Virus record (IMG/VR): IMGVR_UViG_3300048837_000981
Location: 1 to 21,342 of that record
Source of the DNA: a virus
Reading direction: 5' to 3' (one strand)
Length of the DNA stretch: 21,342 bases
The notes under the pieces are model-generated. The model saw nothing but the letters and a program-made list of their open reading frames with translations. It was not told the DNA's origin and did no database searches. This document shows positions 2,497 through 21,290 of this stretch, piece after piece (position 1 is the first letter of the stretch; each line of letters begins with the position of its first letter). A program made the translations under genes and the position numbers.

Positions 2497-3921
2497 ATGA
2501 AAAGTCTCGAAGCGGTAATGATCGTGAAAAACGAGGAGGCGTGTCTCGGCAGAGCGTTGGAGTCGATTCGCGGGATCGACAGGATCACGATCCTTGACAC
2601 GGGGAGCACGGACAGGACCGGCGAAATCGCAAGGGCGCACGGCGCAAACTTCATTGAGGGGGCGTATGTCTGGGAGGACCACTTCGCGAACGCCAGGAAC
2701 AAGGCGTTGGAGTACGCCGTCTCGGACTGGATTTTGATCATCGACGCGGATGAAGTTCTGGAAGCGGGGTCTCTCGAAAGAATCCGGGCGGCAATCGAGG
2801 AGGTTGACGATTCGATTCTCGCGTTGAAATTTATCGTTGTCTCTGCTGGCGGCGGGAACGAACATATCGTTGTTCGGTGCCACCGGCGACACCCGGACGT
2901 TTTCTGGAAGGGCGCGGCTCACAACTACCTGACCGCACAGGACGGACCGTTGATCAACGCGAAAATAATCTACGGCCACTCACCGGCGCATGACCTGGAC
3001 CCGGATCGCACCCTGCGGATTCTTGAACGCGAGGTCGCGGCACGCCAGGAGAAACCGAGGGAGGTTTACTATCTGGCGCGTGAGTATTACACCCGGCAGA
3101 AATGGGACGATGCGATTTCAACCTACCTCAAATACGTGGAGATTTCGAACTGGGCGCCGGAGAAGGCCGACGCATTCCTGATGCTGGCGCGGTGCCGAAT
3201 CGCGGTCGGCGATTTCGAGCAGGCATGGTTCGACGTTTGCCAATCATTGAGGGTAAACGCGGATCTGCGCGAAGGGCTCCTGATGCTGGCGGCTCTTTCC
3301 GGGCCGGTCAACCGGGCGAAATGGACGGAGTATTCCGCACTTGCCACAAACAGCCTTGCGCTTTTCGTTCGCAATGACCTCGCGCTTGAGGAGGTGATCG
3401 AGAAGGGACCGGAATACTACCAGGAGGCGTTCGCGCAATTCCCGGACATGAGCCGATACGAGGAGTTGAATATCGCCGCCGCAAAACTTTGCGGATCCGG
3501 GAAAGTCCTTGACATGGGTTGCGGACTCGGACAGATGCGGCAGTACGTCCGCGATCCAGACCTGTACCATGGGTTCGATTTCGCCGGAGTCGCGGAAGGC
3601 GATTGTTTCGAGGTCGGCGACATCTACGAGTACCCGCTCGAAGGATATGACGTTTACCTGCTGCTCGAAGTCCTCGAACACGTCGATGACATCGAGGTTC
3701 TATCCCGGATTCCATGCGGATCGCGTGTCGTGTTTTCGGTACCGTCGTTTCCCGATCCGGCTCATATCAGGACATATACGGACGAGTCAATGCGTTCAAG
3801 GCTCGGCGAACTCGTGGAGATCAAGACCGTAATCCGCTTCAACTGGTCCGGCGGGAAGTGGCGCGAAGGCGGCGAAAAAACGGATCAGCACATCCTTCTT
3901 GCAGAAGGGAGGAAAAGATGA
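2497..3921 (+). CDS. glycosyltransferase family 2 fused to SAM methyltransferase
   Basis: This 474-residue protein joins two enzymes. Residues 1-165 form a family 2 glycosyltransferase: an MIVKNEE opening strand, LDTGSTDRT at 33-41, and a metal/nucleotide-sugar DxD motif (D83-A-D85, then E86). Residues 185-265 look like TPR-type helical pairs (YYLAREYY; AFLMLARCRIAVGDF). Residues 335-445 are a class I SAM-dependent methyltransferase: motif I VLDMGCGLGQ (337-346), an acidic strand near D361, GDIYE (374-378) and EVLEH (391-395). It probably transfers a sugar and methylates the glycan or its carrier. The substrate is unknown; a virion protein is plausible given its place between terminase and portal, where packaging and head genes are normally contiguous. 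A 20-base gap and an AAAGGG site precede the ATG. Confidence 0.85.
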   Translation: MKSLEAVMIVKNEEACLGRALESIRGIDRITILDTGSTDRTGEIARAHGANFIEGAYVWEDHFANARNKALEYAVSDWILIIDADEVLEAGSLERIRAAIEEVDDSILALKFIVVSAGGGNEHIVVRCHRRHPDVFWKGAAHNYLTAQDGPLINAKIIYGHSPAHDLDPDRTLRILEREVAARQEKPREVYYLAREYYTRQKWDDAISTYLKYVEISNWAPEKADAFLMLARCRIAVGDFEQAWFDVCQSLRVNADLREGLLMLAALSGPVNRAKWTEYSALATNSLALFVRNDLALEEVIEKGPEYYQEAFAQFPDMSRYEELNIAAAKLCGSGKVLDMGCGLGQMRQYVRDPDLYHGFDFAGVAEGDCFEVGDIYEYPLEGYDVYLLLEVLEHVDDIEVLSRIPCGSRVVFSVPSFPDPAHIRTYTDESMRSRLGELVEIKTVIRFNWSGGKWREGGEKTDQHILLAEGRKR

Positions 3922-4085
3922 AGTGCGCGAAGTGCGGGTCAAAAATGAAGGTGACGAACTCACTCCCAAAGAAGAGCGGCGAAATAATCAGGTATAGGAA
4001 GTGCCCTAATTGCCGACTTACAGTAAAGACAAGCGAAAGCAAAGTAATTACCGAGATAATAGATATAGCAATAATTCGTGGATAG
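3918..4085 (+). CDS. small zinc-ribbon protein, NrdR/Ogr-like
   Basis: The ATG overlaps the stop of the glycosyltransferase gene (ATGA), with a GGAGG site in the run-up, and yields 55 residues. It has two C-x-x-C knuckles: C3/C6 in KCAKCG and C29/C32 in KCPNC, separated by a basic, strand-rich stretch. This resembles the zinc-ribbon head of NrdR (without the ATP-cone) and, more loosely, the small phage regulators Ogr/Delta and Com. A role as a DNA- or RNA-binding regulator is therefore plausible but unproven. The 3' half is markedly AT-rich and uses ATA for isoleucine repeatedly, unlike the neighbouring genes, which suggests a separate origin. It lies directly upstream of a palindrome and a promoter-like sequence. 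The zinc-ribbon call is good; the function is open. Confidence 0.7.
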   Translation: MKCAKCGSKMKVTNSLPKKSGEIIRYRKCPNCRLTVKTSESKVITEIIDIAIIRG

Positions 4086-4168: not shown

Positions 4169-5317
4169 TTGATCGACAGATTGAAAAACTTTTTCTTTCG
4201 GAACACCTCCACCTACACCGCGGGTTCGGTTGAGGATATCATCCGCCGACTCGCGAATCAACAAAGAAGTTCTTCCGGGGTCTACGTAGACGAACAGGTG
4301 GCGATGCGTTTCGCTACGGTCTGGGCGTGCGTCCGTTTGCTTTCCGACACGGTTGCACAGATGCCGTGCAAGTTGTATCGCTCTTCGAACGGCGAAACCG
4401 AAATTTTGTACGACTCTCCGATTCACCGCGCAATTTCCGTTCGCCCAGAGCCGGGCCTTACCGCTTTCGATTTCTGGAAAAAATTTGTATCCGGCGTTTT
4501 GCTGGAGGGCTATTCCGTCGCTAAGAAAATCGAGGCGGGAAACGAGTTCCGGCTTGTTCCGGTTTCCGTTACGAGAATGGAGCGTACCCCGTTCGGCGAG
4601 TACATATTCACGTACATCGATTCGAACGGAACCGAAAAACAACTTCTGCAAAACGAATCATTCTTCGCGTTCTACGCGCTCGATAAAAACCTTCTTCCTA
4701 TTTCGCCGATCCGGGCGCAGGCGAACGCGATCGGACTCGGGATCAGCGCGGAAGGCCACGGCGCATCTACGCTCGCCAAGGACGCGACCCCTGCAGGAAT
4801 TCTGGAGTATCCGGGTGCACTCGACGCAAAAGTGAAAGACTCACTTAAAAAAGGGTGGGATAAGGCGTACGGCCCGAACGGCGACGGCGGAGTGGCGATA
4901 CTTGAGGGCGGCGCTAAATTTAATTCCATCGCGATGAGCAACGAAGACGCTCAACTTCTCCAGACACGTCAGTTCCAGAAGCAGGAAATCTGCGGGATTT
5001 ACGGCGTTCCCCCTCACCTCATTTCCGACACCACCCAGGCAAAGGGCTGGTCCACGATGGAACAGTTGATGACCGAGTTCGTTTCCCTGACGGTCACTCC
5101 GATCACGATCCGAATCGAACAGGCTATTTCCTCACATCTTCTCATGGACAGAAAATACCGGGACGCATACGCAAAGTTTTCCACGAACGGATTGCTTCGT
5201 GGGGACATTCGGACGCGGACGGCGTTTTATACGGCAGGGATCGACAAGGGGTTTTTGCTCAAAAACGAAGTACGCGCATTTGAAGACTTGAACCCACTGA
5301 AGGGCACCGAGAAATGA
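4169..5317 (+). CDS. portal protein, HK97 type
   Basis: This 382-residue protein is the HK97-type portal, forming the dodecameric ring at one head vertex through which DNA enters and to which the tail attaches. Diagnostic stretches are VWACVRLLSDTVAQMP (51-66), the central IRAQANAIGLGISAEG segment near 181-196, and GVPPHLISD (279-287) followed by GWSTMEQ. The length is in the usual range for this compact family. The start is a TTG giving M-I-D-R-L, chosen because GGAG lies seven bases upstream and no ATG is better placed. The 3' end overlaps the protease start as ATGA. Expression is probably controlled by the promoter and hairpin immediately upstream. Confidence 0.93.
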   Translation: MIDRLKNFFFRNTSTYTAGSVEDIIRRLANQQRSSSGVYVDEQVAMRFATVWACVRLLSDTVAQMPCKLYRSSNGETEILYDSPIHRAISVRPEPGLTAFDFWKKFVSGVLLEGYSVAKKIEAGNEFRLVPVSVTRMERTPFGEYIFTYIDSNGTEKQLLQNESFFAFYALDKNLLPISPIRAQANAIGLGISAEGHGASTLAKDATPAGILEYPGALDAKVKDSLKKGWDKAYGPNGDGGVAILEGGAKFNSIAMSNEDAQLLQTRQFQKQEICGIYGVPPHLISDTTQAKGWSTMEQLMTEFVSLTVTPITIRIEQAISSHLLMDRKYRDAYAKFSTNGLLRGDIRTRTAFYTAGIDKGFLLKNEVRAFEDLNPLKGTEK

Positions 5318-6108
5318 AAAACAGGATTCAGGGAGAATTGACGAAACCGCGCAAATGGTTCGACGTGAAAGCGTCCGGAACCGACACGGAAATTTACATT
5401 TACGACGTGATCGGCCCTGACTTCTGGGGCGACGGGCTCCGAGCCATTGACCTCGTGCGGCAAATCAAGGACGCGAAGTCGGAAAGAATTGTCCTTCATA
5501 TCAACTCGCCAGGCGGCGACGTGTTCGACGGAATGTCGATTCGGCACGCCCTGCAGGAATCGGGAAAACCGGTTCGCGCCATTGTTGACGGAATCGCCGC
5601 CTCAATCGCGTCCCTGATCTTCGCTACCGGCTCGGAACGCATAATGCCGCAGGGATCCATGCTGATGATTCACAACGCATGGACGTATGCAGTCGGAAAC
5701 CACCTCGACATGACCAAGGCGGCTGACACCTTGAAGAAAGTCGACTCCCAGCTGGTCGCGGCATACGATTCGATATTGAACGTGGACGAAACGCAAATCA
5801 GAAAACTCATGGAGGACGAAACTTACTTCGAGGCGGACGAGGCCGAGAAAAACGGCTTCGCCACAGAAGTCACCGATAAAATGAAAGTTGCGGCGTGCGC
5901 CTGGGATCTCGGGATCCTCGGAGACATGCCGCATGACGGAATGAAAAGGCTGCAAGCCGCAAAACAAAAGCGTGCGCTCGAACAGTCCCTGCGTGATGCA
6001 GGCTATTCGGCTTCGGAGGCAAAGCGCATCGCCTTCGGTCCTCGTGACGAGACCGGAGAAGACATCGCGGCGGCAATTAAGAAAACAATCGCGTTACTCA
6101 AATCGTAA
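5314..6108 (+). CDS. ClpP-like prohead (head maturation) protease
   Basis: The 264-residue product is a ClpP-fold serine protease of the S14 type found between portal and capsid genes. It has the oxyanion-loop motif NSPGGDV (64-70), the nucleophile S97 in GIAASIAS, the catalytic histidine H120 in LMIHN, and an acidic third residue at D168 or E169 ahead of a YFEADEA helix. Such enzymes assemble inside the procapsid and remove the capsid protein's N-terminal delta domain, then digest themselves. The adjacent capsid gene has such a domain, which supports the role. The C-terminal 70 residues are basic and helical and could anchor the protease in the prohead. It starts at the ATGA shared with the portal stop. 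Confidence 0.92.
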   Translation: MKNRIQGELTKPRKWFDVKASGTDTEIYIYDVIGPDFWGDGLRAIDLVRQIKDAKSERIVLHINSPGGDVFDGMSIRHALQESGKPVRAIVDGIAASIASLIFATGSERIMPQGSMLMIHNAWTYAVGNHLDMTKAADTLKKVDSQLVAAYDSILNVDETQIRKLMEDETYFEADEAEKNGFATEVTDKMKVAACAWDLGILGDMPHDGMKRLQAAKQKRALEQSLRDAGYSASEAKRIAFGPRDETGEDIAAAIKKTIALLKS

Positions 6109-6125
6109 AACAACAGGAGAGAATC

Positions 6126-7346
6126 ATGGCACCCGAACTCAAGGAACTGATCGAACAGCAGGGCAACGCCTTCGCGGAATACAAGGCGACGCTCGAGGCC
6201 AAGATCGAAGCGCTCAAAAAGGACAACGGAACCGCCGAACTCGACGGCAAAATCAAAAACATCCTCACCGACTACGACGCAATGAAGGATCGCGTGGACA
6301 AGGTCCATGCCGACCTCCAGCAGGTCAAGATCGGAACTGGCGGAACCCAGAACCACGAGGATCCGAAAGTCAAGGCGCACAAGGAAGCGTTCAACGCCTA
6401 TTGCCGCAAAAACGATGCGTCGAAATACGTCAACGTGGTCCAGTCCGGGGTCGACGCCGAAGGCGGATTCGCCTGTCCGCCGGAGCTTTCCAACATGGTT
6501 GCGAAAACCATTGTCAACGGAAATCCCATCCGGCTACTCGCGAGCAAACAAACTACCCAGCGCGGAGCTTACCAAATTCTGCAGGATCCTAACGACATGG
6601 TCGCCTCCAGAACTGGCGAAATGATTGCGCGTGCCGAAACCAACAATCCACAAATCGGATTGACGACCATCATCCCCGGAGAAATGTACTGCTACCCGCG
6701 CACAACGCAAGCGGCACTCGATGACGGGATTTGGGATTTCGAATCGTGGCTTGTCGAAAAAGCATCCAGAGCATTCAACAATCTCGAAATCACGGAACAC
6801 GCCGCAGGAAACGGTGGAGGCCCTGGGATCAATGCGGCTCGCGGGATCACCGATTACCCGACCGTGCTCGACGCAAACTGGGCATGGGGCTCGATCGGGC
6901 GCATTCATACCGGACAGGCCGCCACCATCGGCACGACCGGCGCGGAACTCGTTAATTGCATGGGAGCTCTGGAAGACGAGTACAAAACGAATGCCGCATG
7001 GATCATGAACCGTGCGACGCTCACGTCCTATCGCCTTCTGCGTGCAGGCGCGAACGCTGCGAACATGTTCCTGTTCTGGCAACCGTCGCTCCAGCCTGGA
7101 ATGCCGGACACCCTTCTCGGGTTCCCGGTCTACACCAGTGCTGGAATGCCGGTGCAGAACAACAACACGCACATCGTTGCGTTCGGCGACATCGGAGCCG
7201 CATACACCGTCGTTGATCGCGTCGGGATGAACATCATTCGCGACAACATCACCATGCCCGGATTCGTCCGCTTCCACGTCTACCGCCGTTCGAGCGGGGC
7301 CGTGGTCAACTTCCAAGCCGTCAAGCTCATCCGTTGCGCGGCATGA
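6126..7346 (+). CDS. major capsid protein, HK97 fold
   Basis: This 406-residue protein is the shell subunit. Residues 1-68 are charged and coiled-coil-like, as in the HK97 delta domain that acts as an internal scaffold. A Gly/Thr/Asn-rich linker follows (about 70-80), and the conserved core begins near 106 with SGVDAEGGFACPPEL. The C-terminal half carries the usual A- and P-domain pattern, including TLLGFPVYTSAGMP and a late FGDIGAAYTVVDR stretch. The protease next door probably cleaves between about residues 70 and 105; the exact site cannot be read. An AGGAGAG site lies shortly before the ATG. No covalent cross-linking chemistry can be asserted from sequence alone. Confidence 0.93.
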   Translation: MAPELKELIEQQGNAFAEYKATLEAKIEALKKDNGTAELDGKIKNILTDYDAMKDRVDKVHADLQQVKIGTGGTQNHEDPKVKAHKEAFNAYCRKNDASKYVNVVQSGVDAEGGFACPPELSNMVAKTIVNGNPIRLLASKQTTQRGAYQILQDPNDMVASRTGEMIARAETNNPQIGLTTIIPGEMYCYPRTTQAALDDGIWDFESWLVEKASRAFNNLEITEHAAGNGGGPGINAARGITDYPTVLDANWAWGSIGRIHTGQAATIGTTGAELVNCMGALEDEYKTNAAWIMNRATLTSYRLLRAGANAANMFLFWQPSLQPGMPDTLLGFPVYTSAGMPVQNNNTHIVAFGDIGAAYTVVDRVGMNIIRDNITMPGFVRFHVYRRSSGAVVNFQAVKLIRCAA

Positions 7347-7423: not shown

Positions 7424-7876
7424 ATGAACGACTTGCATTCCAATATCACCGCAGACGGACTCAACGCCAAGGGGCCGATTCGTCTGGGCGCGTCCGGCTC
7501 GGTTGTCTCGGATCTCCGGGGATTCGCCGCCGCAGAAATCCTGATCCAGTTGTCCGGAACTGGCGCGACGTTCTCCGCCGCGAACCTCGTCCGGCTCTCG
7601 ATCCTCCACGGCGACACCTCGACGGCGGCCACCGCCGCCTGTTCCGCCTCCGATCTGATCACCGACATCACCCCCGTGGCTGGCGTGGTCAAAACCTACA
7701 ACAGTTCCACCGCCGCCGCTCCCGGACTGACGAAGATCGGGTATGTCGGCGGGCGTCGTTACCTTCGCGTCCGCTATGCGGCATCCGGGACCGCAACCGG
7801 CGCCACCGGCATGACCGGCACGCGGATCGGGATCGCTGTCATCAAAGGTCGTCCGGGTCAGGCGCCCGTGGCGTAA
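7424..7876 (+). CDS. putative head decoration/structural protein
   Basis: I do not recognise a named family with certainty. The 150-residue product is rich in Ala, Gly, Ser and Thr and predicted beta-rich, with short strands such as GYVGGRRYLRVRY (about 108-120) and TRIGIAVIKGRPGQAPVA at the end. Proteins of this size and style commonly follow the capsid gene in HK97-like phages and behave as virion decoration or stabilising proteins. The presence of a strong ribosome site (AAAGGG, seven bases from the ATG) and the preceding hairpin suggests separately tuned, high expression. There is no signal peptide or membrane segment. The role is inferred mainly from position and composition. Confidence 0.6.
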   Translation: MNDLHSNITADGLNAKGPIRLGASGSVVSDLRGFAAAEILIQLSGTGATFSAANLVRLSILHGDTSTAATAACSASDLITDITPVAGVVKTYNSSTAAAPGLTKIGYVGGRRYLRVRYAASGTATGATGMTGTRIGIAVIKGRPGQAPVA

Positions 7877-9753: not shown

Positions 9754-10185
9754 ATGGGCAAGACGACCATCATCGTTGACGGCGCTGGCGTCGGAGCGAC
9801 GTTCAATTCGGTCCCGATCACCGACATCAACAACGTAGGTTTTTCGCCGATGGGCGAAAGAGACGAAATCAAACTCACCACGCTTGACGCGACTGACTTC
9901 GAAGTCGGTCTTCTCGGCGATCTGGTCGCCATCGACGACGTGGTAATCAACAAGAAGGCCGATCCAGCCGCAGACGTGGCGCACACGAAGGACAACAAAC
10001 TTCTTGTCATCACCTACAAGATTGGGAAGGCGACGACCAAGACGGCTACGTTCTGGGCGCAACTCAAGAGCGTTTCGCCCTCGACCATCGAACGTGCTCC
10101 CGGCGACGGCGTGAACGTCGATCTGGTGTTCGCGGTAACGAACCTGAACGCAAGCCTGGTCGAAACCGGCCCGGTCCTGACATAA
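9754..10185 (+). CDS. tail tube (major tail) protein, copy 1
   Basis: This 143-residue protein and the next gene are clear paralogues. Both open with (M)xKxTIIxDGA, contain LLGDL near the middle, then LVITYK, and share SxIERAPGDGVNVDL toward the C-terminus. Size, predicted all-beta character and location between the tail terminator and the tail assembly chaperones point to the tube subunit that stacks in rings around the tape measure. I cannot name a subfamily. This copy ends right after the FAVTNLNASLVETGP segment, without the extra acidic tail of copy 2. An AAAGGG site precedes the ATG. Confidence 0.65.
   Translation: MGKTTIIVDGAGVGATFNSVPITDINNVGFSPMGERDEIKLTTLDATDFEVGLLGDLVAIDDVVINKKADPAADVAHTKDNKLLVITYKIGKATTKTATFWAQLKSVSPSTIERAPGDGVNVDLVFAVTNLNASLVETGPVLT
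10086..10112 (+). repeat. 27-bp direct repeat in tube genes, unit 1
   Basis: This stretch is identical to 10534-10560 and encodes the conserved I-E-R-A-P-G-D-G-V core of the two tail tube paralogues. It reflects a gene duplication 448 bases apart rather than a mobile element. Confidence 0.8.
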
Positions 10186-10198
10186 GGAGAAATTGGAA

Positions 10199-10642
10199 AT
10201 GAGCAAAGCTACGATCATCATCGACGGAGCGGACGTGACCGTTGAGTTCGGTGCCGCGACCATCGGCAATGTCAACTCGGTTGCGTTCGGCCTTTTCGGC
10301 GAACGTCCCGAAATCAACCTTACGACCATCGATGCGACGAAGTTCAAAACGAAGCTGCTCGGCGATCTTCAAAAGGTTCAGGATGTCGTCGTCAGTAAAA
10401 AGTCGGAGCCTGCGCTCGATGCGGCTCTTTACGACACCGTTCCCGAGGCTCTTGTCATCACCTACAAGGTCGGAAAAAAAGACGCGAAAGCGACCACGTT
10501 TTACGCTCAGTTGAAAAACATTTCCTCTTCGAGCATCGAACGTGCTCCCGGCGACGGCGTCAATGTCGATCTGAATTTCTTCGTCACGAACATGGATGAA
10601 ACCTTTGACGAAGTCGGACCCGACACCACAGATGTGACGTGA
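10199..10642 (+). CDS. tail tube (major tail) protein, copy 2
   Basis: This 147-residue protein is a diverged tandem paralogue of the preceding one. The start is taken as ATG 10199, with AAGGAGA eight bases upstream, giving M-S-K-A-T-I-I-I-D-G that lines up with copy 1. A TTG at 10193 is in frame but too close to that site. The most conserved block is ERAPGDGVNVDL, where 27 bases are identical in both genes; elsewhere the copies differ at many residues. The C-terminus is more acidic (DETFDEVGPD). The pair could form a mixed tube, or one could be the tube and the other a tail-tip or terminator-interacting ring. Confidence 0.65.
   Translation: MSKATIIIDGADVTVEFGAATIGNVNSVAFGLFGERPEINLTTIDATKFKTKLLGDLQKVQDVVVSKKSEPALDAALYDTVPEALVITYKVGKKDAKATTFYAQLKNISSSSIERAPGDGVNVDLNFFVTNMDETFDEVGPDTTDVT
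10534..10560 (+). repeat. 27-bp direct repeat in tube genes, unit 2
   Basis: This is the second copy of the identical 27-base stretch in the tandem tail tube genes. A shorter shared stretch, CTTGTCATCACCTACAAG, occurs earlier in both genes and supports descent from one ancestor. Confidence 0.8.
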
Positions 10643-14071: not shown

Positions 14072-14981
14072 TCAAACAAAATGGGCTACAGTCGACGTTC
14101 TCGGAAGCGGCGGCGGGCTCTATTGGTGGAAGACCATCGTGAGCGGCGCGGAAAAATACTACATCTCTGCGGCTGTAGGAACGCCATTGACCATTGACGG
14201 AGCGACGTACACGCCGGACGGATCGAGGCCGCTCCATTACGCTCTGCCGGGCGGGTTTTTTCTGTCGCAGGTCGGGGCGACTCTGGCGATCACGAAGCGC
14301 GTCGGCGGCATGGCTCGCGAGCATTCGATCACAGAAGACGGCGTCACGACATGGCTCGGAGATTACTGGCATTCTGACGCTGGCGACGGAACGTTTACGG
14401 CTCGTGGCGCGGCGAAGCAGGCCGGGGCCGCTCCGATCTCAGTAGCGATGGCAACGCCTACGGGCTGGCAAAGCGACACGCTGTACGGAGTCTATGTCCA
14501 CACCAGCGGAGACAAGGAATCATTTCCGGATCGCTACATGGGGTTTCTGCGATCCGAGGCGTCTCATTCACTGACGATTGAGGAAGAGACGGTTTCATGC
14601 AAAATGATTTTCGTCGAAATTGTCGAACGGCATAATGCGGCTCCTGTTCTGGCCGGAGAATATACCGAACCGCCGGAGGCATTGCGCGAACAGGGGAAAT
14701 TCCTGTGGCGTTCCGGATCCGGCAACTGGAGAATATCGGACAGGGTTGCAGTATCGAATCCCGCCGACGGATACTGGGAAAACGCATCCGGGAAATTGGC
14801 TGGAACGTACTCTCGCGTTTATGTTCCGCTGGTCGTTCCTGGGGTCGATCCGCCGCCTCCTCCGCCTGACCCGGATCCGGCTCCTTTCGTTTTGAATATC
14901 GCAACGGTCGAAACGGCTCCTGCCGATCCGGGTTTTTCCGCGTATGATGTACTAATTGGGCAGGTGGGCTTATGGCTGTGA
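14058..14981 (+). CDS. tail-tip protein of unknown family (3)
   Basis: The 307-residue product starts at GTG 14058, supported by AGGAGG five bases upstream. It is beta-rich with many Trp, Tyr and Gly (for example GGGLYWWKTIV near 20-30 and TTWLGDYWHSDAG near 95). Near residues 264-276 a polyproline run (DPPPPPPDPDP) separates the main domain from a C-terminal tail of about 30 residues. Such a linker is common in virion proteins that join two parts. No catalytic motif or known family is recognised. The gene overlaps both neighbours by a few bases and sits between other unassigned tip genes and the tail fibre, so a tip or adhesin-adaptor role is inferred. Confidence 0.55.
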   Translation: MFLRNQTKWATVDVLGSGGGLYWWKTIVSGAEKYYISAAVGTPLTIDGATYTPDGSRPLHYALPGGFFLSQVGATLAITKRVGGMAREHSITEDGVTTWLGDYWHSDAGDGTFTARGAAKQAGAAPISVAMATPTGWQSDTLYGVYVHTSGDKESFPDRYMGFLRSEASHSLTIEEETVSCKMIFVEIVERHNAAPVLAGEYTEPPEALREQGKFLWRSGSGNWRISDRVAVSNPADGYWENASGKLAGTYSRVYVPLVVPGVDPPPPPPDPDPAPFVLNIATVETAPADPGFSAYDVLIGQVGLWL

Positions 14982-16288
14982 CATCATGGACCGACTACGG
15001 AATGGACTGGGCGAACCCGGACCTACGCGACGGCAGGTACATGGAGGCTCTGGTCGGGGCCGTCAACGAGCGAACCGACGCGCTCGGGTCGGGCGGCGCG
15101 GGGCTTCCGGTGCTGGAGTACGCGGGCTCGAACGGCTACCTGTCTCTGACCGAACTTAACGCGATCCACTCGGCGACGCTCGGACTGATCGGGAATTACA
15201 TCGACTACCGGCGGCTCCGCGATTCGTGGGAGCGATTCGGAACGATCCGCTGGAGCCTCGACGGCGTGCTGGAACGGCTCGGACGAACGAACCTGATCGA
15301 CCCGAACAGAAATCTGCTCGCGGTAGGCGGCGCGACCGAATGGGCGAAGCAGACCCGCGACATCCTGAATCTGCTGACGCACTGCGTACGGACCGTGCAG
15401 GGGAAGACGTTCCGGGAGATCGTGTCGCGGGAACGGCAGGCATGGTGGGACTGGCTCGAACTGGCGAAATTCTCAGAGGACTGGATGCGGGATGTCGTCT
15501 TCGACGGCGAGTGGACTCCGAACACGAAACCGGGCGAAAGCGGCATGGTCCAGAATAGCCGCGTCGAGAACGGAATGTACAGACCAAAATGGCCTGACGA
15601 CGCTCCGCCCGGAACGATCCGCGGCGAGAGCAACGGAAAGATACCGGGTCCGTACGTTTCGCTCGGATGGGAGTTTCCCTGTCCGGGCAGGCTCGGCGAG
15701 TCCATGGACGTTCCGGCGGCGAAGGGCGTTGCGACATCGAACGGCTTTCCGGCCACGCTGGAAGGCCACGCCATGAACGATTACGTCTGCGAATACACGC
15801 CGTACGATATGGAGCAGGAAGCACGATATGCCGAGGTTGTCGCGAAGTACGAGAAAGGCTCGCTTCAATTCCGGCAACTGCTGGAGACCGACAACGACTG
15901 GTATCTGTGCTATCGGGTCGGGTGGCTGAAGAGTCGCGACACCATCGGCGCGACGATCGACGAGATTTTTTATGCGCCGCTTTCGGGAACGCTCGAACTT
16001 TGGGCTCGCGTGGTCGGGTCCGAGGCGACCGAATACGGATCACGGGACTACGCGCCGCTGGCCGAAAAAGGCTGGAGGCGGATGGACTCGTTCGCCGTTC
16101 CCGAGGGGGCGACGCGGCTACGACGCGACGAGATCGCCGCCGCCACGCTTCCGCGTCTCGCGGTCCCGAACGCGAACATACCGGGATCATGGAAACACGA
16201 CGCGAGAGCGACGGACGGCTGGAAACGTTACGAAATCGGGGACTGGACCGGGATATACGCACCCAACTTTACATTCAAGGGGAACTGA
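14972..16288 (+). CDS. tail-tip/fibre-adaptor protein of unknown family (4)
   Basis: I do not recognise this 438-residue protein. The N-terminus (SWTDYGMDWANPDLRDGRYMEALVGAVNERTDAL) has the look of a virion assembly segment that ends in helices. Residues 75-170 are helical and charged (LRDSWERF; ILNLLTHCVRTVQGKTFREI). The C-terminal half is beta-rich with repeated aromatic residues (DNDWYLCYRVGWL; GTLELWARVVG). No signal peptide, membrane segment or catalytic triad is visible. It begins at ATG 14972 with AGGTGGG upstream, overlapping the previous stop. It directly precedes the fibre gene, so connecting the fibre to the tail tip is a reasonable but unproven role. Confidence 0.55.
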   Translation: MAVTSWTDYGMDWANPDLRDGRYMEALVGAVNERTDALGSGGAGLPVLEYAGSNGYLSLTELNAIHSATLGLIGNYIDYRRLRDSWERFGTIRWSLDGVLERLGRTNLIDPNRNLLAVGGATEWAKQTRDILNLLTHCVRTVQGKTFREIVSRERQAWWDWLELAKFSEDWMRDVVFDGEWTPNTKPGESGMVQNSRVENGMYRPKWPDDAPPGTIRGESNGKIPGPYVSLGWEFPCPGRLGESMDVPAAKGVATSNGFPATLEGHAMNDYVCEYTPYDMEQEARYAEVVAKYEKGSLQFRQLLETDNDWYLCYRVGWLKSRDTIGATIDEIFYAPLSGTLELWARVVGSEATEYGSRDYAPLAEKGWRRMDSFAVPEGATRLRRDEIAAATLPRLAVPNANIPGSWKHDARATDGWKRYEIGDWTGIYAPNFTFKGN

Positions 16289-16289
16289 A

Positions 16290-19200
16290 ATGAGCGAAAA
16301 AATCTATTACGACATGCGAACGGACAAAGCCTACCGTGGCGACGGCTCCGACATCGCGAACGACAACGTCCCGGAACTCAGGTACAAGGACGACCGCTAT
16401 TTCGAGGTACAGTTACTCGCCACCGACCACAAGGACGGAAACGGCGCATTCGACGATCCGTACACCGATCTTGACGGAGTGGCCGCAGCGGCTTCCGCCG
16501 CGATCGACAACAACAAAACGCACTATTTCGACGGACTCATTCATACCGCGATCACGGGCGGCGCGGCAATCGCAACCGTCAAGGTCAAGTCGCTTTCCGG
16601 CACGCCTCGTTCCTGCGGCACGATCCGCCTGGTGAATTCCACGGGCCAGACCGAAACCGTGAACTACAACGGGTTTTCTGTCGCTCTCGCAGTCTACACG
16701 TTCACGCTCGCAGATTCTGATTTTGTCGTTGGCAGTCAGACCCCGACATACTCCCATGCCGAAAACGACAAGACGCGAGTGCTCGAATTGCCGATTGTCA
16801 AGGACGCGGCATGCGACATTTCGCAGATCGCGGACGGCATCCTGACGATCCATGCCGACTGCAATAAACTCATCTACCAGGAGCTCGTACACGGAAGCGA
16901 AGAGATTTCCGGAACATTAATGGAGTGGCAGATTTTCGACTCCGGGACGAAACGCGTCTTGGTCAAGTCGATCCCGGTCAAACTGCTTTCGGTGCTTGAC
17001 GACGATGGCGCGGTAGGACCTGCACCGCAGGGCGACTACTACAATAAGACGGCAAGCGACGGACGATACGTACAGGCCGCGCTCGGCACGGCATACGCAA
17101 AGGAATCCTCCCCGTCGGCGACCGACAAACTCGCGATCCTCACGGCTGGAGGCTTGCGCCATGTCGAGGTCGGAGACCTTCCGGCTGGCTCGCCTGCCGA
17201 CGACTCGATCACGACCGCGAAGATACTCAATGCGAACGTGACGGCGGCAAAACTCGCCTCCGATGCGGTCGAAACCGCGAAGATCAAGGATGCGAACGTG
17301 ACAGCGGCGAAACTTGCCACCGATGCGGTAGAGACGGCGAAAATAAAAGACCTGAACGTGACGGAAGGCAAACTGGCCGCCGAGGCCGTGACGACCGCGA
17401 AACTCGCCACCGGCGAGCGCATGAATAAAACGAACATCGAGGCGGCGCTCACCGGAGAGATCTCCTCACACACCCACGCCGCGACCGCTCCCGCTACGGA
17501 CTCAGTGGACACGGAGCACGTCAAGGACGGCGCGATCACCTCGGAAAAACTGGACGTGAACCTTGCAGAGTCGCTTGTTACGAAGGCGCGTATCGAGGCG
17601 GTGCTGACCGGGGCGATTGCGACCCATACGCACAACTTGAGCGACATCGAAATCGAGAACGGGATCGACACCCCGAAAGCCGCACTGGACGAAACCGACA
17701 ACGGCAAATGGATCACGGCGCAGGTTTCGACCGACACACCGCCCGCCGGGGCAAGTCTGCTACTGCACCTGAACGGGAACGCGACCGACTACGGCGCGGC
17801 GGGGCTCGCGGTCACGAATACGGGCGTTACGTTCGAGGCTTCCGAGGGTCCGCAATGGGGATCGCAGAGAGCCGTTTTTGATGGAACCGCGAAACTCAGC
17901 GTCGCAGATTCAGACGGCTTCGCCCCCGGAACGAACGGGGCTTTTCTGGCTCTGGCTCGGGTCACGTTCGCGACCGGGACGCTGGCGCAGGTGCATACGA
18001 TCCTGTCGAAGGAGTCCCCTGCATCCAAGGGCTTCCGCCTCGAATGGAATCCGACGCGAGGGCTCGTGTTCTCGTGGGCGGATGCCGCTGGCGCGGTCTT
18101 CACGGGCGAAATGTCCGTATACTGGTTGCCTGTAGTCGAGACAGGATACACGGTCGGCGTGGCGTACTCGGGTACGGCCCTGACGCTCTTCGTCACGACG
18201 GGCGGAACCTACACCGTTGCGATGGCGACCGAGACCCGCGCCGTCACGATCTACAACGAGTCGAACGCCCTGCTGGTCGGCGAGTCGGGCGAAACCGGGG
18301 AGGAAAACAACTTCGAGGGGACGCTTGATGAACTGCTGTTCTGGAAGGGGGACCCTGCTACGTTCGTGACAATCAGCGGAACAGGCGTGACCAATACAGC
18401 CCCATACGCCCCGCTTGATGGCGACGTGCTGGTTACGCGCAAATACGACATCACCGACCAGACCGAAGACCAGTACGTCTACTATGTGGACAAGACCGCT
18501 GGCTCCGACCTCAATACCGGCGCAACCGAGGCAACCGCGATCCAGAACCTTACCGAGGCCATTGCGCGGATCGGCGGACGCTCGGGACGTTTCACGATCT
18601 ACCTCAAATACGGTTCGACTCACACACTCACGAACTATCTGACGCTCGGGAAAAACTCAGACAACATAAACACGGCCTCGGCATCCTACACGTTCCAGTC
18701 TTACGGCGGGCCGGGTGCTGTCCCGGTCATCGCCACGGAGGCGTATCATATCTCGCTGATGGGGCCCGTATCGGCATATTTTTACGGAGTTGTTTTGACC
18801 TCGACGAGCGGTCAGATTTTTTCCAGCGCGGTCGGGGAGTCGGCAATCACACTGATCAGTTGCACGCTTTACGGCGACCGTCCCGACACAAGCCCGATTT
18901 TCTCGGTGTATCAAGCGGCAAAGATGCTCGTTCTTGCGAAGAGCACGATGTTTACGGTCGTCGGCGGGTTCGGAACGCCCGCAACGGATCAACCGCTGTA
19001 CGAGTTGACAGACGAATCCTGCGGCTTCGAGTTCTACGGCGAGTCCAACACCTACAGCGGAACGCCAGCGTACTACCTCACGCCCCCCAACATCGCCGGG
19101 AAGGAAGGCGTGGACGTGGACGGGGTGACGCTCAAGGATGGAGGGATCAAATTCGGCTCGAACGCCGGGCCAACGAATGAAAACGGGGAGTATGTTGGAG

Positions 19201-19805
19201 CGCTTATCAATTACTACGTCAGCACCGCAGGGAGCGACACGGCGGCGGGCACGGCGGCGGCTCCGCTCGCGACCATAGAGGAAGCGATAGCGAGAATAGT
19301 CAGGCTCAACGCAAAATATGCGGGTATCTTACTCGAAAGGGATCAAACCCATGCTGTCGCGGCGGACATCGAAGTAAATAATATAGGTTTGCTATTCAAC
19401 GTTAACGGCTCCGGCGCAAACCCGATAATTAACCTTGCCGGAAACCGAATAATTTTGCGAGCCGGGGGTTCTTGCACGTTTACAGCTATTTCCGTCAATG
19501 CAAATACCGGCGGGGCTGGAAACGCAAACGGAATGCTTGCGACCAATTACGGCCATGGGACATTTTCGTTCTCCTCCTGCACGATTATCGGCGACGACAG
19601 CACCCCGCGCGTAATTTTCCGACCGTCCGGGCAGAGCTCAATGCTGGTGATGATGAACTCAACTACCGTTCGCGGCAATGGCTCCGGCGCAGGGCGGGCG
19701 GTTTATGCCGTCGCAACGGCTGGCAGGTTTGAAATCAACGATGTTTCCGGCACATGGTCTTCCGGGGATTATACGTTGCCGGCTGAAAACACACCACTGG
19801 TATAA
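16290..19805 (+). CDS. modular tail fibre with LamG and beta-helix-like domains
   Basis: The product is 1171 residues from ATG 16290, which has an AGGGGA site seven bases upstream. The frame stays open back to 15972 but that part overlaps the previous gene. In order: an N-terminal beta-rich virion-anchoring region (1-245), a YYNKTASDGRYV fibre motif near 250, three 20-residue repeats (310-369), and two segments each ending in an HTH motif (394-396, 446-448) like the metal-binding HxH of fibre shafts. Then come a LamG/concanavalin-like domain (about 489-692) and two related segments starting YYVDKTAGSD (near 731) and YYVSTAGSD (near 975) that look like right-handed beta-helix, pectate-lyase-fold modules. 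It probably forms a trimer that binds surface glycans; no depolymerase residues can be assigned. Confidence 0.83.
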   Translation: MSEKIYYDMRTDKAYRGDGSDIANDNVPELRYKDDRYFEVQLLATDHKDGNGAFDDPYTDLDGVAAAASAAIDNNKTHYFDGLIHTAITGGAAIATVKVKSLSGTPRSCGTIRLVNSTGQTETVNYNGFSVALAVYTFTLADSDFVVGSQTPTYSHAENDKTRVLELPIVKDAACDISQIADGILTIHADCNKLIYQELVHGSEEISGTLMEWQIFDSGTKRVLVKSIPVKLLSVLDDDGAVGPAPQGDYYNKTASDGRYVQAALGTAYAKESSPSATDKLAILTAGGLRHVEVGDLPAGSPADDSITTAKILNANVTAAKLASDAVETAKIKDANVTAAKLATDAVETAKIKDLNVTEGKLAAEAVTTAKLATGERMNKTNIEAALTGEISSHTHAATAPATDSVDTEHVKDGAITSEKLDVNLAESLVTKARIEAVLTGAIATHTHNLSDIEIENGIDTPKAALDETDNGKWITAQVSTDTPPAGASLLLHLNGNATDYGAAGLAVTNTGVTFEASEGPQWGSQRAVFDGTAKLSVADSDGFAPGTNGAFLALARVTFATGTLAQVHTILSKESPASKGFRLEWNPTRGLVFSWADAAGAVFTGEMSVYWLPVVETGYTVGVAYSGTALTLFVTTGGTYTVAMATETRAVTIYNESNALLVGESGETGEENNFEGTLDELLFWKGDPATFVTISGTGVTNTAPYAPLDGDVLVTRKYDITDQTEDQYVYYVDKTAGSDLNTGATEATAIQNLTEAIARIGGRSGRFTIYLKYGSTHTLTNYLTLGKNSDNINTASASYTFQSYGGPGAVPVIATEAYHISLMGPVSAYFYGVVLTSTSGQIFSSAVGESAITLISCTLYGDRPDTSPIFSVYQAAKMLVLAKSTMFTVVGGFGTPATDQPLYELTDESCGFEFYGESNTYSGTPAYYLTPPNIAGKEGVDVDGVTLKDGGIKFGSNAGPTNENGEYVGALINYYVSTAGSDTAAGTAAAPLATIEEAIARIVRLNAKYAGILLERDQTHAVAADIEVNNIGLLFNVNGSGANPIINLAGNRIILRAGGSCTFTAISVNANTGGAGNANGMLATNYGHGTFSFSSCTIIGDDSTPRVIFRPSGQSSMLVMMNSTTVRGNGSGAGRAVYAVATAGRFEINDVSGTWSSGDYTLPAENTPLV
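17217..17396 (+). repeat. three 60-bp tandem repeats in fibre gene
   Basis: Three adjacent 60-base units encode AKI(L/K)(N/D)xNVTxxKLAxxAVxT, 20 residues each. Units one and two are the most similar; unit three is more diverged (LNVTEGKLAAEAVTT). The 20-residue period with regularly spaced Ala, Val and Leu fits a trimeric fibrous shaft. Unit number could change by recombination. Confidence 0.8.
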
Positions 19806-19823
19806 ATTGAATTGAGGTGAAAA

Positions 19824-20129
19824 ATGCTTGTTTCTGTCATTTACAACGGGACTTTTTATCACAACTGGGACGAGGCGAAACTTAGGGCGTTGATCGGCGA
19901 CGAGGCGTATGAGGCGGCGATTCCCGCACCCCGCTACATCTCGAAATTCCTCGTCCTCAATCGCGTTGTCGCGGCGGGCAAATTTGCGGATGCCATGACC
20001 GCACTCGGCGGGCCGGGCTCGCTACAGTATGAGCTATGGAGCGCGGCGCAGGAACTCGACGCGAACGATGAGCAGGTACGGGGCTTGATCACCGCAATCG
20101 GGTTGGACCCGGCGGAGGTGCTGGCATGA
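19824..20129 (+). CDS. small fibre-adjacent protein, unknown function
   Basis: This 101-residue protein follows the fibre gene by 18 bases, with a GAGGTG site before its ATG. It has a short N-terminal beta segment (MLVSVIYNGTFYHNW), then helices (residues 16-60) and a C-terminal module ELWSAAQELDANDEQVRGLITAIGLDPAEVLA. The latter resembles the ends of small proteins found after fibre genes in many phages, some of which are fibre-assembly factors, but I cannot name a family. It ends in an ATGA overlap with the next gene, tying it to the terminal cassette. Confidence 0.5.
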   Translation: MLVSVIYNGTFYHNWDEAKLRALIGDEAYEAAIPAPRYISKFLVLNRVVAAGKFADAMTALGGPGSLQYELWSAAQELDANDEQVRGLITAIGLDPAEVLA

Positions 20130-20434
20130 CCAACGCCGCAGAAATCCGCGAAATCGTCCGTGCCGAAATGGCGCAGAAGTCGAGCGTCCCTTGGTGCGGA
20201 GCGTCGCCTGAAATCGTCGGGCAACACAGCGAAAAACTGGACTCGTTGAAACGGGCGGACGATAGGATTTTTGCGGTGCTGGAGAGGATGGACGCGACAC
20301 TGCACGAGATACGGCAGGAAATAACTATCCTCAAAACCGAGCGGAGTACTGCCGTAAAAATCGCGGCGGGCATCGGCTCGGCTGCCGGGGCGACCACCGC
20401 AATATTTTTTCAAATTCTCGGAACAAGGGGGTGA
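20126..20434 (+). CDS. XhlA/holin-like membrane protein
   Basis: The 102-residue product has a charged, coiled-coil-like region (about 34-72; EKLDSLKRADDRIFAVLERMDATLHEIRQEI) and one C-terminal hydrophobic segment (about 77-97; VKIAAGIGSAAGATTAIFFQIL). This is the architecture of XhlA-type phage proteins, which help holins or endolysins act at the membrane. It could instead be a holin itself or a membrane-anchored accessory protein. Its place just before a lipoprotein gene and the end of the late operon favours a lysis role. GGAGGTG lies seven bases before the ATG. An N-terminal spanin is less likely because the membrane segment is at the wrong end. Confidence 0.6.
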   Translation: MTNAAEIREIVRAEMAQKSSVPWCGASPEIVGQHSEKLDSLKRADDRIFAVLERMDATLHEIRQEITILKTERSTAVKIAAGIGSAAGATTAIFFQILGTRG

Positions 20435-20436
20435 GC

Positions 20437-20814
20437 ATGAGGGCAATTTTCATCGTTTTGGCGGCGTTGCTGCTGACCGGGTGTTCAATGGGGCGCAAAT
20501 CGTGGGGGATGGCGACGAGCGCGGATGCGTTCAAGGTTGTTTTGGCCGACCCTCAAAGCGGATCGACAGTCCCGGAACTGGTCGCGGGCGGAGGGTGTGT
20601 TGCGGCTGTTTTCGCCGTGCCGATGGAGCCCGGGCAAACCATGAGCAGGCACATATCGTACTCGCGGCGGCGTAGCCTCTGGAATGTGTTTTCGAGCGCG
20701 TCGGCGAGCAACGTCGGATGCGTCTATATCTCCGGCTCGGATGAGTCGGCGGAAGAAACGGCGAAAATCCTGGAGGCGTTTGGGCGGGTTGTCAATGGCG
20801 AGGCCGACGAGTGA
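20437..20814 (+). CDS. phage lipoprotein, function unknown
   Basis: This 125-residue protein begins with a short hydrophobic signal peptide and a clear lipobox, L13-T14-G15-C16, followed by Ser. In a diderm a +2 serine would send it to the outer membrane. I start it at ATG 20437 because GGGG ends six bases before; the in-frame GTG at 20431 abuts that site. The mature part is Ser/Ala-rich with a C-terminal helix (ESAEETAKILEAFGRVV). It could be an outer-membrane spanin, although it is not proline-rich like Rz1, or a superinfection-exclusion lipoprotein. It ends in a GTGA overlap with the last gene. Confidence 0.65.
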   Translation: MRAIFIVLAALLLTGCSMGRKSWGMATSADAFKVVLADPQSGSTVPELVAGGGCVAAVFAVPMEPGQTMSRHISYSRRRSLWNVFSSASASNVGCVYISGSDESAEETAKILEAFGRVVNGEADE

Positions 20815-21242
20815 CGGACTGGGAAAACCAACAGAAGCGAGCTCACGTTGCGTACCTGCTCCGGCAGGTGCGGCGGTATCGACTTCATGCCTCACCGGAA
20901 TTTCACCAGGCGGATATCCGGGATCTCGTTTCGGCATACAACGGCGCCGGGCCGGACACCCTCGGATGGATCGGGCCGCAGACGACCGCGAAAATCCGAA
21001 AAATCCTCACGGGCGCGTACTGGTTTTTCGAACCGGCATTTCTGATCCACGATTGGGATTTTCAAACGAGCGGGGAGAAATTCGACCGGCAAATCTCGAA
21101 CGAATGCCTCCGGCGGAACCTCGCGATTATCATCGAGGCGGAAATTAATCCGTGGATGTCGCCGGTATCATGGATCCGACGCAAACGCCAGGCATGGTGC
21201 ATAGTAGCCGCGTGCAGGGCATACGTCGCGTCAATGAGTTAG
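20811..21242 (+). CDS. putative phospholipase A2-like protein
   Basis: This 143-residue protein starts at GTG 20811 (GTGA overlap; GAGG seven bases upstream). It contains AYNGAGPDTLGW (42-53), then FEPAFLIHDWDF (73-84) and GEKFDRQISNECLRRNL (88-104). The order NGxGP, F-x-P-A-x-x-x-H-D, then a following aspartate (D92) matches bacterial and viral phospholipase A2-like proteins, where the glycine loop binds calcium and the HD pair is catalytic. The usual cysteines flanking HD are absent, which weakens the call. There is no signal peptide. As the last gene before the terminators, beside a membrane protein and a lipoprotein, it could attack lipids at lysis. Alternatively it could be a structural protein with a chance motif. 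Confidence 0.45.
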   Translation: MTDWENQQKRAHVAYLLRQVRRYRLHASPEFHQADIRDLVSAYNGAGPDTLGWIGPQTTAKIRKILTGAYWFFEPAFLIHDWDFQTSGEKFDRQISNECLRRNLAIIIEAEINPWMSPVSWIRRKRQAWCIVAACRAYVASMS

Positions 21243-21245
21243 TTT

Positions 21246-21290
21246 GACCCGCCAAGCCTCTGTCCTCGACATGCTCAAATTTGGCGGGTC
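21246..21290 (+). terminator. terminator-like hairpin 1 after late genes
   Basis: GACCCGCCAA (21246-21255) pairs perfectly with TTGGCGGGTC (21281-21290) across a 25-base loop, followed by TTTGTTT. The arms are strong, but the loop is long and the T-run interrupted, so it may be a weak terminator or processing site acting with the next hairpin. Confidence 0.6.

What the first reader, a model, noticed from the sequence alone, without database searches (positions are those of the whole stretch)
2497..3921. Glycosyltransferase-methyltransferase fusion inside the packaging/head module
Between terminase and portal, a place normally kept contiguous, lies a single protein with a GT2 domain (DAD at 83-85), TPR-like helices and a complete SAM methyltransferase (VLDMGCGLGQ, EVLEH). 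One polypeptide could add a sugar and methylate it. Glycosylation of capsid or tail proteins by phage-encoded enzymes is known in some actinobacteriophages. This fusion may decorate the virion or alter host surface sugars.
Basis: partly seen in the sequence, partly recalled or inferred. Interest (0 to 1): 0.62.

Follow-up and report, generated by a model that had tools for sequence, protein, structure and literature searches.

The report
Phage sugar-adding enzyme fused to methyltransferase
A phage gene lodged between two DNA-packaging genes encodes one protein that looks able to attach a sugar to a protein and then methylate it, and related phage genes often sit beside collagen-like virion proteins that are their likely targets.

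Summary
Window 2497-3921 is one 474-aa ORF: family-2 glycosyltransferase (GT), TPR helices, class I SAM methyltransferase (MT), between terminase and portal, all catalytic motifs intact. Two other viral contigs (L312 57%, L313 56% identity) carry the same fusion in the same slot. Five more full-length fusions (37-45%) lie elsewhere. An AlphaFold model (pLDDT 88) matches the peptide glycosyltransferases SunS/ThuS (Z 24-26) over residues 1-275 and SAM methyltransferases (Z 14.7) over the C-terminal part. So the GT core most resembles enzymes that glycosylate proteins. New here: viral relatives of the GT-TPR core sit beside Thr-rich collagen-like (GPT-repeat) genes in 14 of 47 sequence clusters, against 0 of 120 random and 0 of 99 terminase loci. 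Clostridioides difficile SgtA, also GT2-TPR beside a collagen-like gene, is shown in the literature to glycosylate Thr in GPT repeats. Other members fuse the same core to a sulfotransferase or pyruvyltransferase. Best reading: a virion-protein O-glycosyltransferase with a built-in cap-adding domain. Weak point: neither the window nor its 41-kb sister encodes a collagen-like protein, so the substrate in this lineage is unknown, and no activity has been shown.

The parts
2497..3921 (+). GT2-TPR-methyltransferase fusion protein, 474 aa
2497..2991 (+). GT-A family-2 glycosyltransferase domain (residues 1-165)
   Evidence: Pfam PF00535 E 4.2e-18; SunS 7msp Z 25.9 over residues 1-268
2596..2607 (+). 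DTGS nucleotide-sugar motif (residues 34-37), invariant
2743..2751 (+). DAD (DxD) metal/nucleotide-sugar motif (residues 83-85), invariant
2992..3381 (+). TPR-like helical domain (residues 166-295), probable acceptor-binding part
   Evidence: helices 171-282 in the model; TPR superhelix matches; weak Pfam TPR hits
3394..3918 (+). class I SAM-dependent methyltransferase domain (residues 300-474)
   Evidence: fold matches 5ufm and 3ofk Z 14.7; orthologue L313 passes Methyltransf_23 cut-off
3505..3534 (+). SAM motif I VLDMGCGLGQ (residues 337-346)
   Evidence: D339, G341, G343 invariant
3667..3681 (+). EVLEH motif (residues 391-395)
   Evidence: E391, E394, H395 invariant
3918..4085 (+). small zinc-ribbon ORF (55 aa), overlaps the fusion stop codon as ATGA; similar small zinc-ribbon ORFs follow the fusion gene in L312 and L313
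878..2476 (+). terminase large subunit, 20 bp upstream
4169..5317 (+). portal protein
5314..6108 (+). ClpP-type head maturation protease
6126..7346 (+). HK97-type major capsid protein (possible acceptor, untested)

Best explanation
It is a soluble, phage-encoded protein O-glycosyltransferase with its own capping enzyme. The N-terminal GT-A domain transfers a sugar from a nucleotide-sugar made by the host. The TPR helices hold the acceptor polypeptide, a virion structural protein made from the same late operon. The fused SAM methyltransferase then O-methylates the added sugar or glycan, capping it. Shown: fold, intact motifs, conserved fusion, conserved genomic slot, association of relatives with Thr-rich collagen-like genes. 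Inferred: that the acceptor is a virion protein, O-linkage to Thr/Ser, that the methyl group goes on the sugar, the donor sugar, and the biological benefit (altered adsorption, protection or immune recognition). In relatives with GPT-repeat proteins those are the likely acceptors. In the window's own lineage the acceptor is unidentified.
For: (1) Residues 1-275 match SunS/ThuS peptide glycosyltransferases well above anything else (Z 24-26, next 17). Best PDB sequence hit is GmaR, E 1e-19; from general knowledge GmaR glycosylates Listeria flagellin. (2) No membrane segment (maximum 19-residue hydropathy 1.26). (3) Same fusion in the same TerL-portal slot in L312 and L313. GT-MT identity to L313 (56%) is close to that of portal (53%), protease (57%) and capsid (62%) and exceeds TerL (41%); GT (62%) and MT (55%) halves are similarly conserved. 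(4) Thr/Ser-rich Gly-X-Y runs near viral GT-TPR genes: 27/80 loci (first scan), 14/47 clusters, against 0/120 random and 0/99 TerL loci, p 4e-9 at cluster level; 178 runs on the GT strand, 12 opposite. Reverse test: 17/120 GPT-repeat loci carry a GT2-TPR, 0/120 random, p 8e-6. (5) C. difficile SgtA, GT2 plus C-terminal TPR, immediately upstream of bclA3, adds O-GlcNAc to Thr of GPT repeats in vitro (PMC7157674). (6) The core is fused to other glycan-modifying domains in relatives: MT at the N-terminus (L047), a sulfotransferase-like domain (L034), a pyruvyltransferase domain (L321), which points to the sugar as the methyl acceptor. (7) PBCV-1 A064R is a proven GT-GT-MT fusion capping a capsid glycan (PMC9614988). 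(8) FlmG's TPR domain binds its flagellin acceptors (PMC7591256).
Against: No collagen-like protein in the window (21 kb) or in L313's whole 41.4-kb record, so the strongest acceptor evidence comes from relatives, not from this lineage. No nucleotide-sugar synthesis genes seen in the window. The protein scores only 50 bits against the SunS model (cut-off 350), so substrate class cannot be read from family membership. Donor, linkage and methyl acceptor untested. The contig is a fragment.
Confidence: 0.6

Rival explanations
1. It modifies a host surface glycan (LPS, teichoic acid or capsule), for example to block superinfection, with methylation of the added sugar.
For: GT2 enzymes often act in LPS/teichoic acid synthesis; papers usually read phage GTs this way (PMC7029224); a weaker fold match to TarS/TarP/RmlT teichoic acid GTs (Z 15-16).
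Against: SunS/ThuS fit far better (Z 24-26) and over the TPR part too; no membrane segment; gene sits in the head operon; relatives associate with collagen-like virion genes.
Confidence: 0.17
2. The two domains act on different targets: GT on a virion protein, MT on a protein side chain or terminus, fused only for joint recruitment.
For: SAM-MT fold matches include small-molecule N-methyltransferases and do not define the acceptor; the domains are separate units joined by a lower-confidence linker (residues 290-310, pLDDT about 60-70).
Against: Other fusions to the same core are a sulfotransferase-like and a pyruvyltransferase domain, and MT fused in either order (L047), the pattern expected of sugar-tailoring; A064R precedent.
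Confidence: 0.13
3. DNA modification: the GT adds sugar to modified bases and the MT methylates DNA or the sugar, protecting phage DNA.
For: Phage GTs on DNA are well known, and this role was proposed for GTs of freshwater actinophages (PMC10202952).
Against: Fold and TPR are of the protein-acceptor type; no base-hypermodification genes found in the part of the genome held; association with collagen-like genes.
Confidence: 0.04
4. A horizontally acquired cargo gene with no fixed role in this phage.
For: About one terminase-portal interval in seven in relatives holds extra DNA, so this is a tolerated insertion slot.
Against: Same gene, same slot, all motifs intact in three phages diverged to 41% in TerL.
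Confidence: 0.06

Closest known systems
C. difficile SgtA (O-GlcNAc transferase of the spore collagen-like protein BclA3; PMC7157674)
   Same: GT2 domain plus C-terminal TPR; cytosolic; relatives of the window gene, like sgtA, neighbour a GPT-repeat collagen-like gene
   Different: SgtA is bacterial, 358 aa, has no methyltransferase; the window lineage has no collagen-like gene in the sequence held. Direct sequence comparison with SgtA was not made.
SunS / ThuS peptide glycosyltransferases (PDB 7msn, 7msk)
   Same: Whole GT plus helical C-terminal part superposes (Z 24-26, about 270 residues, 18-20% identity)
   Different: Far below the SunS family cut-off (50 vs 350 bits); no bacteriocin precursor seen nearby; extra MT domain
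Chlorovirus PBCV-1 A064R (GT-GT-MT; PMC9614988)
   Same: Single viral polypeptide that adds sugars and then O-methylates the terminal one; acts on the major capsid glycan
   Different: Eukaryotic-virus protein, GT34-like first domain, two GT domains, no TPR; no homology claimed
Mycobacteriophage Che8/Rita virion glycosylation (cited in PMC11256854)
   Same: Tailed phage, virion proteins carry glycans, phage-encoded GTs
   Different: In the related phage Maravista the GTs lie near the genome's 3' end as separate genes; homology to the window protein not tested
FlmG flagellin O-glycosyltransferase (PMC7591256)
   Same: TPR module gives acceptor specificity to a fused GT
   Different: GT-B fold, TPR at the N-terminus, pseudaminic acid donor

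Membership tests
GT2 family (Pfam PF00535) | Score over the curated cut-off | tested here: met
   66.3 bits vs 23.3
GT2 family (Pfam PF00535) | DxD and nucleotide-sugar motifs intact | tested here: met
   Invariant in 22 aligned relatives
Class I SAM methyltransferase | Pfam Methyltransf_23 over cut-off in this protein | tested here: not met
   20.8 bits vs 27; orthologue L313 passes with 30.7
Class I SAM methyltransferase | Rossmann MT fold and GxG SAM motif | tested here: met
   5ufm and NodS Z 14.7 over residues 264/294-474; motif invariant in 8 of 8
SunS peptide S-glycosyltransferases (TIGR04195) | Score over equivalog cut-off | tested here: not met
   50.5 vs 350 bits
SunS peptide S-glycosyltransferases (TIGR04195) | Shared GT plus helical domain fold | tested here: met
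   Z 25.9, 265 residues, rmsd 2.3
SgtA-like collagen O-glycosyltransferases | GT2 followed by TPR | tested here: met
SgtA-like collagen O-glycosyltransferases | Adjacent collagen-like GPT-repeat gene | tested here: not met
   None in window, L312 or L313 records; met in relatives L032, L033, L047, L330 and present in the L314 record
SgtA-like collagen O-glycosyltransferases | Sugar transfer to Thr of GPT peptides | not testable with these tools
   Needs biochemistry
Viral GT-MT fusion that caps virion glycans (A064R type) | GT and MT on one viral polypeptide | tested here: met
   recurs in seven other loci full length
Viral GT-MT fusion that caps virion glycans (A064R type) | Methylated glycan on a virion protein | not testable with these tools
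   Needs mass spectrometry of virions

The most novel reading that the evidence does not exclude
Many uncultured phages carry a modular virion-protein glycosylation kit: one SgtA/SunS-type GT-TPR core, often beside its Thr-rich collagen-like acceptor, with interchangeable fused capping enzymes (methyl, sulfo, pyruvyl). In the window's lineage the kit moved between terminase and portal and was retargeted to a non-collagen virion protein.
Probability: 0.35. Interest if true: 0.7.

Novelty: new variant of a known kind. Interest (0 to 1): 0.52.

Why it matters
Phage GTs are usually read as modifying DNA or host surface sugars. The statistical link between GT-TPR genes and collagen-like genes points instead to glycosylated virion fibres and gives a named acceptor motif (Thr in GPT repeats) that can be tested directly in vitro. 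If true, phages build capped glycoproteins with single fused enzymes, a bacterial-virus parallel to chlorovirus A064R, with consequences for adsorption, virion stability and immune recognition of phages.

Tried and rejected
Single-protein scan of viral contigs with P0001 or the window portal found nothing; only profile scans reached relatives. DNA-level search of phages found no match. I looked for a collagen-like acceptor in the window and in the sister record and found none; the only GXT-like traces are GATGMT in the 7424-7876 protein and GESGET in the fibre, and the sister's counterpart does not keep the first, so I do not claim it. I considered whether nearest TerL relatives share the inserted gene: L002-L020 hold other small ORFs or nothing there. 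Papers linking phage GT2-TPR genes to collagen-like proteins: none found in the held library; absence there is not proof of novelty. I checked that the collagen association is not background by using terminase loci and loci drawn with an arbitrary 14-mer.

Full report
What is there. Window 2497-3921 is a single uninterrupted ORF of 474 aa, 20 bp after the terminase large subunit and about 250 bp before the portal; a 55-aa zinc-ribbon ORF overlaps its stop codon as ATGA. The window itself is a 21,342-base IMG/VR virus record, classed as linear, often a fragment, holding an ordinary HK97-type head-tail module: TerS, TerL, portal, ClpP-type protease, major capsid, connectors, tape measure, fibre.

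Domains. GT2 is certain by sequence. TPR and MT are below Pfam cut-offs in this protein but well supported by structure: an AlphaFold2 model from 22 relatives has mean pLDDT 88 and pTM 0.74. Residues 1-275 superpose on SunS and ThuS peptide glycosyltransferases (Z 24-26), well clear of the next match (WrtF, Z 17); the C-terminal part matches SAM methyltransferases (5ufm, NodS, Z 14.7). By sequence the best solved relative is GmaR, then SunS. The GT module ends at a sharp boundary shared by its closer relatives (W..ATN..VLFxR, residues 276-292), after which they either stop or carry a different domain.

Relatives and synteny. Profile scans found seven other full-length fusions: L312 57%, L313 56%, L314 45%, L330, L032 and L033 42% (viral contigs) and L390 37%, a 4.5-kb contig binned as Patescibacteria but flanked by a collagen-like and a tail-spike-like gene, so probably a phage (inference). 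In L312 and L313 the gene lies in the same TerL-portal slot. Against L313 the fusion (56%) is as conserved as portal, protease and capsid and more so than TerL, and GT and MT halves are similarly kept. In a quick GT-TPR tree the window, L312 and L313 form one supported group. The TerL-portal interval is empty or short in 79 of 96 loci, but 14 hold more than 700 bp, so the slot is unusual, not unique.

Collagen link. In L032, L033, L047 and L330 the fusion gene lies next to, or a few genes from, genes with (GPT)n repeats; the L314 record also carries them. To test this I counted runs of at least 8 Gly-X-Y triplets with Thr/Ser in at least half of third positions. First GT scan 27/80 loci, second 46/78 (the scans share contigs), 14 of 47 clusters at 50% identity within 4 kb on the same strand; terminase loci 0/99; random 14-mer loci 0/120. 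Cluster-level Fisher p is 4e-9. Runs lie on the GT strand 178 to 12. Reversed, 17 of 120 loci picked only for GPT repeats hold a GT2-TPR gene against 0 of 120 random (p 8e-6). Cellular cases exist too: Priestia, Niallia and Paenibacillus plasmids and a Peptococcaceae contig (L396).

Modularity. The same core is fused to a sulfotransferase-like domain (L034, below the Pfam cut-off but with the PAPS-type motif), a pyruvyltransferase domain (L321), a different MT-like domain (L391), and an N-terminal MT (L047). Such enzymes commonly cap sugars, which is the main reason to think the window's MT acts on the sugar.

Mechanism. From these facts the most likely mechanism is glycosylation of a virion polypeptide held by the TPR part, then O-methylation of the glycan. 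Biochemical precedents for each step exist separately: SgtA (GT2-TPR, Thr of GPT repeats, PMC7157674), FlmG (TPR binds acceptor, PMC7591256), A064R (viral GT-GT-MT on capsid glycan, PMC9614988), Che8/Rita (phage virions carry glycans, cited in PMC11256854). The gap is the acceptor in this lineage: no collagen-like gene exists in the window, L312 or the 41.4-kb L313 record.

Verdict. A real, intact and conserved fusion; a new variant of a known kind. The broader pattern around it, phage GT-TPR genes paired with collagen-like genes and fused to capping enzymes, is the more interesting part, and I found no paper describing it in the held library.

Noticed in passing
L034:4001-5542 (also L318, L319): GT2-TPR core fused to a C-terminal sulfotransferase-like domain (VGHPRSGT motif) on a contig rich in collagen-like genes.
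   Followed up: partly
L321:2095-4290: 732-aa protein: GT2 core, a second GT domain and a polysaccharide pyruvyltransferase domain, followed by a collagen-like gene.
   Followed up: partly
L047:3923-5533: Domain order reversed: SAM methyltransferase first, then GT2 and TPR; directly follows a collagen-like gene.
   Followed up: partly
L470 (phage DSL-LC01, OQ999401) 14514-21056: GT2-TPR gene beside a 'tryptophan halogenase' gene and several collagen genes; might halogenate a collagen-like virion protein or its glycan.
   Followed up: no
L022 (phage PaBG) and L025 (phage HRDY3): Jumbo Pseudomonas phages carry a GT2-TPR gene about three genes from the prohead protease.
   Followed up: no
window 21248-21289 (+): Borderline Rfam abiF RNA match (37.3 bits, cut-off 37); the stretch is also a terminator-like GC hairpin, so it may be chance.
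   Followed up: no
window 9754-10185 and 10193-10642: Two adjacent similar proteins (shared S.IERAPGDGVNVDL) at the tail-tube position, apparently a tandem duplication.
   Followed up: no
window 15972-19805: The listed fibre ORF overlaps the preceding gene; its real start is probably the ATG at about 16290. It holds a 60-bp tandem repeat at 17230-17402.
   Followed up: partly
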